This document shows positions 4,570-56,446 of a stretch of DNA of 64,000 bases, piece by piece. Origin of the DNA: Planctomycetota bacterium (lineage in GTDB: Bacteria > Planctomycetota > Phycisphaerae > UBA1845 > UTPLA1); contig JACRIM010000028.1 of the NCBI GenBank assembly GCA_016235815.1, positions 62,001-126,000 of the forward strand. Direction: 5' to 3'. The stretch's first letter is position 1. The number at the start of each line of letters is the position of its first letter. The notes below the pieces were generated by a model. The model did no database searches and was not told the DNA's origin. It saw only the letters and a program-made list of their open reading frames with translations. The position numbers were made by a program, and so were the translations under genes.

Positions 4570-5787
4570 TTATTCAAATCGAAGGGCATCGATGGGATCA
4601 AGGCGACTTGCCCGCCAGGCGGGGTAGAAGCCGAAGAAGACGCCGGTGGCAAAGGCGAAGCTCATGGCGATGGCGGCGATCCAATAGGACACGGCCGTTT
4701 CGTAGCCCTTCCACGCCGTGAGGAGATACGAGAATCCCCAGCCGCCGAACATACCGATGATGCCGCCGAGCGTGCAGAGGACAACGGCCTCGATCAGGAA
4801 TTGCGCGAGAATGTCGCTGTTGTTGGCGCCGATGGCCATGCGCAGACCGATTTCGCGGGTGCGCTCGGTGACGCTTACGAGCATGATGTTCATGATGCCG
4901 ATACCGCCGACGCAAAGTGAAACGCTGGCAATCATGCCGAGCAGCCATGAAAAGGAATCGCTTGATTCTTCCTTCACCGCCGCCGATTCGCTCAGGGCGA
5001 AGATGCGGAAATCGTCGGGGTCTTCATCGCGCAGGTTGTGTCGCTGGCGGAGCAATCGGCGGATCTGGTCTTCCGCCACTTTCGGGTCCACGCCGTGGTG
5101 CGCTGCGGCGACGAGGGTGCCGGAGATTTCGGTGCCGGCGACCTTGGCCTGAAAGGTGCTGTAGGGGAAGAGAATCATGTCATCCTCGTCGCGCATGCCG
5201 TTGCGCCCCTTGAAGCCGAGCAGGCCGACAACCTTGAAGCGGGCGTTCTTGACGGTGATCTCTTCGCCGATGGGGCTCACGGAGCCGAACAATTCGCGCG
5301 CGGCGGTCAAGCCGATGCAGCAGACCGGGCGTTTCATTAACTCATCGGATTCATCGAGCGTGCGCCCGGCCTCGACGCCCCAGCGGCGGATGTCGTGGAA
5401 GTTTGGCAGGACGCCCATGAGGTTCGTCGAATAGTTGCTATAGCTGGACTTCACCTGTTGCGAAAGGCGGTTGGTCGGGCTGGCGGCGCGGACGGCGGCG
5501 CATTCGGCCATGATGGCGTCGGCGTCCTGCCGGGTTTGAAGCGGTTTGCGCTGCTGGTCGGCCTTGCGGACACCGCTACGCGAGACGCCCCACGACCAGA
5601 CAAACATCCAGTCATCGCCAAGCCGGGCAATCTCAGCCTCGACGCGGGCCTTGGTGGCTTCGGCCATGGCGACGAGCGTGATGACCGCGCCGACGCCGAT
5701 GATGATGCCGAGCATGGACAGGCCGGTGCGGACCTTGTTTTTGCCGAGGCTGATGAGGGATTCGGAGATGAGGGAGGGGAGGTTCAT
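4570..5787 (-). CDS. MacB/FtsX-family ABC transporter permease
   Basis: The 405-residue protein has the MacB layout. An N-terminal helix (LSMLGIIIGVGAVITLVAM) is followed by a large periplasmic MacB core domain over about residues 45-270. A C-terminal FtsX domain with three helices includes GIGIMNIMLVSVTERTREIG, a strongly conserved MacB/LolC-type stretch. Such permeases pair with a cytosolic ATPase for mechanotransmission across the envelope, as in export of macrolides, peptides or lipoproteins. No ATPase gene lies next to it, so its partner must be encoded elsewhere and the substrate is unknown. Confidence 0.88.
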   Translation of the reverse strand: MNLPSLISESLISLGKNKVRTGLSMLGIIIGVGAVITLVAMAEATKARVEAEIARLGDDWMFVWSWGVSRSGVRKADQQRKPLQTRQDADAIMAECAAVRAASPTNRLSQQVKSSYSNYSTNLMGVLPNFHDIRRWGVEAGRTLDESDELMKRPVCCIGLTAARELFGSVSPIGEEITVKNARFKVVGLLGFKGRNGMRDEDDMILFPYSTFQAKVAGTEISGTLVAAAHHGVDPKVAEDQIRRLLRQRHNLRDEDPDDFRIFALSESAAVKEESSDSFSWLLGMIASVSLCVGGIGIMNIMLVSVTERTREIGLRMAIGANNSDILAQFLIEAVVLCTLGGIIGMFGGWGFSYLLTAWKGYETAVSYWIAAIAMSFAFATGVFFGFYPAWRASRLDPIDALRFE

Positions 5788-5857: not shown

Positions 5858-5956
5858 CTGAGTGGTCCGCACAGCGGACCCTACTTGCAACTGAGTGGTC
5901 CGCACAGCGGACCCTACTTACAACAGCGGACCCTACTTGCAACAGCGGACGCTACT
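5858..5956. repeat. Tandem 33-bp palindromic repeat, two full and two partial copies
   Basis: A 33-bp unit occupies 5858-5890 and 5891-5923 with one difference, and right halves follow at 5924-5942 and 5943-5956. Each full unit contains the perfect hairpin GGTCCGC-ACA-GCGGACC (5864-5880 and 5897-5913). The final partial copy runs into the stop codon of the gene ending at 5952. The array lies between two minus-strand genes. Confidence 0.85.
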
Positions 5957-6599
5957 TTCCGGGGGCGGTGGTGGGGGCGCGTTCTTCTTTTTTCACCTGC
6001 TCGCGGACACGCTTGAGGGCATCGACGTATGGCTCGCCGATGGCGCGTTCTTCGGCGGTGGTGTTTTCCATGACCCACTGCTGCACGTCGTCGGATCGGG
6101 TGCCGGAGTTGGTTTTGAAGAGGACGGCGAGATCCTTGAACTGCAGGGCCTGATCGCGGCCTTCGACGAGTTTTTGGCGGCAGTACGTGCTTTTCTCCGC
6201 GCTGGAGGAAAGCGTCGCGAATTTCTTGGCATCATCGAGAAATGACTTCTTGAGCCGACGGAGCAGGGCGTTCACAAAGTCTTTTCTTGTCGCTTCGTTC
6301 ATGTCCTTGATGAATGCCTTCAACTCGTCACGGGCCTTGGCATCCGACAGATGACGCTGCCATTCGTCGAGCAGTTGCTTTTGCTGCACATCGGGCAACT
6401 TCGCAAGGCCGCGGTCATTGGCGATGAATTCGACCATTTCGGCGGCGCTTGCCTTGGCGACGATGGGTGTGGACGGTGTTGATGAAAGCTCGTAATAAAC
6501 GAATCCGATGATGAGGATCAGACCGACGACGGCGCCGATGACGAGCGCCGGCCGATGGTGTTTGACAACGTGCTGGACCTTTTGAGTCGGCATGGACAC
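5952..6599 (-). CDS. Hypothetical single-pass membrane protein
   Basis: This 215-residue protein has a short basic cytosolic N-terminus, one helix (ALVIGAVVGLILIIGFVYY, about residues 18-36) and a long charged helical domain outside the membrane. I recognise no family. Its start lies 6 bp after the pseudopilin gene, so the two are probably co-transcribed. Its TAG stop (complement of 5952-5954) lies inside the last partial copy of the adjoining repeat, so the present C-terminus may have been set by spread of the repeat. Confidence 0.7.
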   Translation of the reverse strand: MSMPTQKVQHVVKHHRPALVIGAVVGLILIIGFVYYELSSTPSTPIVAKASAAEMVEFIANDRGLAKLPDVQQKQLLDEWQRHLSDAKARDELKAFIKDMNEATRKDFVNALLRRLKKSFLDDAKKFATLSSSAEKSTYCRQKLVEGRDQALQFKDLAVLFKTNSGTRSDDVQQWVMENTTAEERAIGEPYVDALKRVREQVKKEERAPTTAPGK

Positions 6600-56027: not shown

Positions 56028-56425
56028 CTATGCAGAAAACAGGACACGGGAAGTGATTCCGTTTGGAGTGGGTGCGAGATGGGAATCTCGCACCAGCCGT
56101 AAATTTGGGTGCGAGAAAGGATTCACGCACCAGCACGTGGGTGCGAGAAAGGATTCTCGCACCAGCACGTCTATGTAGAAAACAGGACACGGGAAGTGAT
56201 TCCCTTTGGAGAGGGTGCGAGATGGGAATCTCGCACCAGCCGTAAATTTGGGTGCGAGAACGGATTCACGCACCAGCATAATTCACGCACCAGCACGTGG
56301 GTGCGAGAAGGGATTCTCGCACCAGCATAGAACGGATTCACGCACCAGCATGAAGGGATTCACGCACCAGCATGGGTGCGAGAAGGGATTCTCGCACCAG
56401 CAGAGAAAGGATTCACGCACCAGCA
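56028..56425. repeat. Dense palindromic repeat array (GGTGCGAGA family) with a 108-bp direct duplication
   Basis: About eleven GCACCAGC-ended units occupy 400 bp. Full units are hairpins with stems such as GGTGCGAGAA/TTCTCGCACC or GGTGCGAGAT/ATCTCGCACC and 4-nt loops; others are right halves only. A 108-bp block at 56028-56135 recurs at 56171-56278 with about four differences. No conserved spacers or genes are included. The array ends about 20 bp from the stop of the next minus-strand gene. Confidence 0.85.
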
Positions 56426-56446
56426 GCGTACGCGCGCGAATCGCCG

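What the first reader, a model, noticed from the sequence alone, without database searches (positions are those of the whole stretch)
5858..5956. Tandem 33-bp hairpin repeat that supplies the stop codon of a gene
Two full and two half units abut the 3' end of the gene ending at 5952. The unit, read on the minus strand, begins AAGTAGGGTCCGC, and the gene's TAG stop falls exactly in that TAG. The repeat may have spread into the gene and fixed its C-terminus.
Basis: partly seen in the sequence, partly recalled or inferred. Interest (0 to 1): 0.58.

Follow-up and report, generated by a model that had tools for sequence, protein, structure and literature searches.

The report
Mobile hairpin repeat ending a gene
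A short copied-around DNA hairpin sits at the very end of a bacterial gene and its first letters serve as the gene's stop signal; such hairpins and this habit were already known, and comparison with relatives shows that the protein's end is hardly changed by it.

Summary
At 5858-5957 there are two full 33-bp units and two half units, and the gene at 5952-6599 (minus strand) ends on the TAG of the last half unit. The unit contains a REP element of the GTAG type (GTAG, 7-bp stem, 3-nt loop). The element occurs about 80 times in this genome (backward control 0), in 41 of 101 genomes searched, and around a cognate REP-associated tyrosine transposase (RAYT).

REP heads as stop codons are general here: 17 of 83 copies (plus the window copy) do it exactly. 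Di Nocera et al. 2013 already state that GTAG REPs often provide the TAG stop of flanking ORFs.

Two of 15 repeat-free homologs end at the same alignment column; the rest lie within 7 residues either way. In a related genus, 20 of 28 repeat-free orthologs of REP-stopped genes end at exactly the same residue. The REP takes over the stop in place and leaves the protein nearly unchanged. How it gets there (insertion at a G-TAG stop, or deletion joining a downstream REP to the stop) is open.

The parts
5858..5957 (-). tandem array: two full 33-bp units, two half units
5863..5884 (-). full REP copy GTAG + 7-bp stem + 3-nt loop, 0 mismatches to the genomic consensus
5896..5917 (-). full REP copy, 0 mismatches to the genomic consensus
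5923..5936 (-). half unit: head, 5' stem arm and loop only (3' arm missing)
5942..5955 (-). half unit abutting the gene; head GTAG, next base changed to C
5952..5954 (-). TAG stop codon of the gene = TAG of the half unit's GTAG head
5952..6599 (-). host gene, 215 aa, a hydrophobic stretch near the N-terminus (by eye); no Pfam match above its cut-off, no NCBIfam match
4570..5787 (-). next gene in the same direction, MacB-type permease (MacB_PCD + FtsX); the array lies between the two genes

Best explanation
The repeat is a small tandem array of a REP element (repetitive extragenic palindrome) of the GTAG type, dispersed in this genome and in related Planctomycetota together with a RAYT transposase. 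REP copies settle mostly outside genes, often right at gene 3' ends. The head GTAG contains TAG, so when the head abuts a coding frame in register it becomes the stop codon. Here the last, half-deleted unit of the array does this for the gene 5952-6599. The protein ends about where its repeat-free homologs end, so the REP took over the position of an existing stop instead of cutting the protein short. Shown: the array, the family, the RAYT association, the stop, the unchanged ends in orthologs of other genes. Inferred: that RAYT moved the copies; how the stop was taken over; that the window gene followed the same course.
For: RAYT: a gene at G000 C29:132161-132730 lies between REP copies; it matches NCBIfam REP_Tyr_transpos, 6.6e-57, and PDB 4er8 TnpArep, 1.2e-39. 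Of the 30 fetched RAYT loci, all 7 with 62-100% identity carry GGTCCGC-stem REPs; none of the other 23 does, 21 of them showing other GT(A/G)G hairpins. Stem: 7 of 7 pairs always paired in 8 distinct variants, 4 with changes on both sides; 0 of 500 shuffles reach the covariation score. Stop: 17 of 83 copies are exact TAG stops; of 35 copies with a same-strand stop between -4 and +60 nt, 17 are at -4 and no other offset has more than 2. Ends unchanged: 15 homologs; 20 of 28.
Against: Mobility was not seen directly. REP number and close RAYT do not always go together: G023 has 75 core copies but its best RAYT match is only 1.6e-7. Genes were called with a home-made codon-usage caller. The window array is a same-direction tandem, not the usual outward-facing pair. 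The host gene's homologs are distant (at most 45% identity), so a short tail loss is not excluded.
Confidence: 0.88

Rival explanations
1. One reading: the repeat spread into the coding region and gave the protein a new, shorter or otherwise fixed C-terminus.
For: The stop is in the repeat. Three of the closest homologs (L020, L022, L023; 44-45% identity) are 4 residues longer at the end.
Against: Two of 15 repeat-free homologs (L021, L030) end at the same column, 5 are shorter, 8 longer, all within 7 residues. In genus g19, 20 of 28 repeat-free orthologs end at the same residue.
Confidence: 0.1
2. Stop capture by deletion: the REP first lies downstream of the gene's own stop; a deletion then joins the old stop position to the REP head, helped where the old stop is itself preceded by G (G-TAG matches the head GTAG).
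For: ISPA: G023 stops at TGA with a REP pair starting 9 nt after it; G043 has the same pair (spacer 22 of 24 identical; 0 of 2000 shuffles as good) with its head as the stop, and the same last residues RRDR. THYX: in G061 and G077 the pair starts 26-27 nt after a TAG stop; in G043 a pair with a related spacer (0 of 2000 shuffles as good) is fused to the stop. EPIM: G043 has TAA at the same residue and a REP head 15 nt after it.
Against: Direction is not settled: for ISPA the other species G061, G077 and G101 have TAG at the stop, so G023 may be the derived state by insertion. Only three loci; spacers picked by eye.
Confidence: 0.35
3. Targeted arrival: RAYT inserts REP pairs at GTAG-like sites; G-TAG stops are such sites, and only insertions that keep the stop survive.
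For: 13 of 28 repeat-free ortholog stops are TAG, several preceded by G (GALE G061 and G077, THYX G023 and G061, GDSL G061, EPIM2 G077), against 46 TAG of 165 repeat-free stops in the REP loci of G000 (a different genome, so only a rough yardstick).
Against: Sister stops may be remnants of lost REPs (PURM in G043 and G077 still shows decayed REP letters). Published TnpAREP cleavage sites are CT or CA, chosen with the help of GTAG, not GTAG itself (PMC8266576, passages).
Confidence: 0.25
4. Functional placement: REPs at stops are kept because they tune the gene pair, by stalling ribosomes near the stop or by stabilising or attenuating mRNA between the two co-directional genes.
For: REPs less than 16 nt from a stop were reported to lower translation in E. 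coli (as cited in PMC12306157, passages). The array lies between two co-directional genes.
Against: No terminator-like site; the array as RNA folds little better than shuffled sequence (z -0.89). No expression data.
Confidence: 0.15
5. Coincidence of a TAG-bearing repeat with a stop.
For: TAG is a common trinucleotide.
Against: 17 of 35 nearby copies sit at exactly one of 65 offsets (binomial about 5e-22 under a crude uniform null); coding frames enter REPs in the TAG frame in 48 of 73 cases in three sets against one third expected.
Confidence: 0.01

Closest known systems
GTAG-type REP elements (Di Nocera et al. 2013, PMC3733652)
   Same: GTAG head, short palindrome, many dispersed copies, mostly downstream of genes, pairs in opposite orientation, known in Planctomycetes, and the statement that GTAG REP termini often provide the TAG stop codon to flanking ORFs.
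   Different: The stem letters GGTCCGC or GCGGACC were not found in the main text of that paper. A comparison of orthologs with and without the REP, showing unchanged protein ends, was not among the passages read.
RAYT / TnpAREP (Nunvar et al. 2010, PMC2817692; TnpAREP structure PDB 4er8)
   Same: A Y1-type transposase gene between inverted REPs; REP stem changes along with RAYT divergence.
   Different: Another sequence family, in Planctomycetota; the transposase gene itself also ends on a REP TAG.
BIMEs (REPs in alternating orientation)
   Same: Many copies elsewhere in the genome form outward-facing GTAG...CTAC pairs.
   Different: The window array is a tandem of one orientation with half units.

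Membership tests
REP, GTAG type | GT(A/G)G head directly before a GC-rich palindrome | tested here: met
REP, GTAG type | many dispersed copies in the genome | tested here: met
   76 places, backward control 0
REP, GTAG type | mainly outside genes | tested here: met
   15 of 83 copies flagged inside a called ORF, several of these ORFs weak
REP, GTAG type | cognate RAYT gene flanked by inverted copies | tested here: met
REP, GTAG type | moved in trans by the RAYT | not testable with these tools
   needs a cleavage or mobility assay
RAYT (REP_Tyr_transpos) | sequence match over the curated cut-off | tested here: met
   NF047646.1, 191.5 bits, cut-off 80
RAYT (REP_Tyr_transpos) | HUH motif and catalytic tyrosine | tested here: inconclusive
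   H-x-H and a D-Y-I stretch line up with 4er8; their roles are recalled, not tested
BIME | REPs in alternating orientation | tested here: not met
   all units of the window array are on the minus strand

The most novel reading that the evidence does not exclude
Stop-codon capture as a general route by which a mobile element settles harmlessly: because the RAYT recognition head GTAG contains an amber stop, REP pairs can replace a gene's own stop at the same residue, through recombination or targeted insertion at G-TAG, giving the element a protein-neutral niche at gene ends and, between convergent genes, a stop for both at once.
Probability: 0.3. Interest if true: 0.5.

Novelty: new member of a known kind. 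Interest (0 to 1): 0.3.

Why it matters
It shows with ortholog comparisons that a dispersed repeat can take over a gene's stop codon without changing the protein, and it adds a RAYT/REP family from uncultured Planctomycetota with a visible link between transposase divergence and compensated stem changes. It turns 'REPs often provide the stop' from a remark into something that can be counted and tested.

Tried and rejected
Rfam gave nothing useful at the locus (one sub-threshold match). A terminator or promoter at the array: none. Whole-array RNA fold: little better than shuffles. The search for related loci in genome contigs with the host protein: no relative found, so no close empty site for the window gene itself. 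Truncation of the protein by the repeat: rejected as the general rule, not fully excluded for the window gene. Row dropped from the ortholog count: PURM in G061 (a run of N in the contig there). Missing rows: no match for EPIM, GDSL, PURM, THYX and EPIM2 in G101. An 84-aa frame in G023 (L220, minus) that also ended on a REP TAG was left out of the ortholog query as probably spurious. The ends compared are ungapped estimates. The identity of sister stops may partly reflect older REPs that decayed (TIM44 in G043, TAAGGTTCGCCGT, looks like a decayed head and is counted among the repeat-free rows). No control was made for how often orthologs of REP-free genes share their last residue in this genus. 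The spacers compared were picked by eye.

Full report
The observation. One search shows the sequence; searches find two 33-bp units at 5858-5923 and two shorter units spaced 19 bp up to 5957. On the minus strand each unit starts with GTAGGGTCCGCTGT. The full units continue GCGGACCA, making a 7-bp stem with a 3-nt loop; the half units lack that 3' arm. The half unit next to the gene reads GTAGCG instead of GTAGGG. The gene 5952-6599 ends GGA AAG TAG in that head.

What it is. The 23-mer core has 76 places in the own genome within 3 mismatches and none for the backward control. With another rule (at most 4 mismatches over 21 nt) I found 83 copies in the 47 stretches fetched. Many are outward-facing pairs. 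The 20-mer core (1 mismatch) occurs in 41 of 101 genomes (own plus 100 relatives), with 75 copies in the own genome and up to 123 in one relative.

The transposase. Ten Y1_Tnp matches lie in the own genome. One, at C29, lies between REP copies on both sides and is a RAYT by NCBIfam (6.6e-57) and by likeness to TnpAREP 4er8 (1.2e-39). Its own reading frame ends on the TAG of a REP, and so does the gene that faces it. Relatives were found in 83 of 101 genomes. Among the 30 RAYT loci fetched, the 7 with 62-100% identity are flanked by GGTCCGC-stem REPs; none of the remaining 23 is; 21 of those show other GT(A/G)G hairpins nearby. Across 8 distinct REP variants from these flanks (10 picked by hand) all 7 stem pairs are kept, four of them through changes on both sides, and no sliding of the structure comes close. 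Against a simple coupling: G023 has 75 core copies but no close RAYT (best 1.6e-7).

REP heads as stop codons. With a simple codon-usage gene caller trained on the window, 17 of 83 copies in the own genome are exactly the TAG stop of the upstream gene; the window half unit is one more, not among the 83. Of 35 copies with a same-strand stop between -4 and +60 nt, 17 sit at the one offset where the head is the stop. In a second test, coding frames that run into a REP do so in the TAG frame in 18 of 32 cases in the own genome, 21 of 32 in the named loci and 9 of 9 in G023; together 48 of 73 against one third expected. Some non-TAG frames run through the REP, for example a gene whose last residues are partly encoded by it (L081). 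Many of the other non-TAG cases lie deep inside long ORFs.

Is the C-terminus changed? For the window gene, 15 same-family homologs were aligned. None has this hairpin in its fetched stretch. Two end at the same column, 8 are 4-7 residues longer, 5 are 4-7 shorter; stops are TAA, TAG and TGA. That is scatter at an unconserved tail. Because no homolog is closer than 45% identity, the exact old end cannot be read for this gene.

A sharper test used a genus of five species (G023, G043, G061, G077, G101). I took 8 genes stopped by a REP in G023 (of 9 frames; one probably spurious was left out) and 4 more from G043, found orthologs and compared ends. Of 55 ortholog rows, 26 have a REP head at the stop (at most 6 mismatches over 20), 28 do not, and 1 was dropped (contig gap). 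Of the 28, 20 end at exactly the same residue, 4 at +1, 2 at +3, 1 at +6 and 1 at -1, with 13 TAG, 9 TAA and 6 TGA. So the REP takes the place of a stop that is there anyway. Caveats: some repeat-free rows may be old decayed REPs, and I made no control for REP-free genes.

How the takeover may happen. ISPA is the clearest: in G023 the stop is TGA and a REP pair starts 9 nt after it; in G043 the same pair, judged by its spacer (22 of 24 identical), begins with the stop itself, and the protein ends on the same residues. THYX and EPIM are similar. Either a deletion joined a downstream REP to the stop, helped by the match between G-TAG stops and GTAG heads, or a REP arrived at the stop and later moved apart by insertion; the other species leave the direction open for ISPA. 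Targeted insertion at G-TAG is another possibility.

Comparison with what is known. Di Nocera et al. 2013 (PMC3733652; abstract, passages and the section on genome distribution read) describe GTAG REPs in Planctomycetes among others, say that REPs lie mostly downstream of coding regions, and state that GTAG REP termini often provide the TAG stop codon to flanking ORFs (they call it opal; TAG is amber). Nunvar et al. 2010 (PMC2817692; passages) describe RAYTs flanked by inverted REPs with GT(A/G)G heads. PMC8266576 (passages) shows the part of the head in TnpAREP recognition and cleavage-site choice. PMC12306157 (passages) cites work on REPs close to stops lowering translation. I did not find this comparison of protein ends in the passages read or in the listings of searches; that is a limited search.

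Verdict. A real, correctly seen feature; a new family of a known kind of element doing something already noted in print; the C-terminus claim is not supported. The most interesting remainder is the protein-neutral takeover of stop codons.

Noticed in passing
window 56070-56430: A second array of palindromic repeats (GGGTGCGAGAAGGGATTCTCGCACC and half units); the 25-mer has 27 places in the genome within 3 mismatches, backward control 0. It looks like another REP-like family with the same habit of half units.
   Followed up: partly
L074 3502 (G000 C23:83042-83102): An outward-facing REP pair between two convergent genes gives the TAG stop to both.
   Followed up: partly
L081 minus strand 3502 (G000 C29): A gene appears to read through a REP, so its last residues (VGSAVRTMNAS) are partly REP-encoded.
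   Followed up: no
L104, L108, L112, L129, L153, L164, L167-L169, L178, L186, L195, L196, L198, L202, L210, L215: The exact 22-nt REP also occurs in purple sulphur bacteria (17 of 118 stretches), suggesting transfer of the RAYT/REP pair across phyla.
   Followed up: no
L204, L213: Contigs titled 'Alphaproteobacteria bacterium IP29b_bin.190' have the same lengths as contigs of G023, which is listed in the window's own order; the title may be wrong.
   Followed up: no
G023 (whole genome): 75 REP core copies but no close RAYT in a 97% complete genome: REPs may outlive their transposase, or the gene lies in a gap.
   Followed up: no
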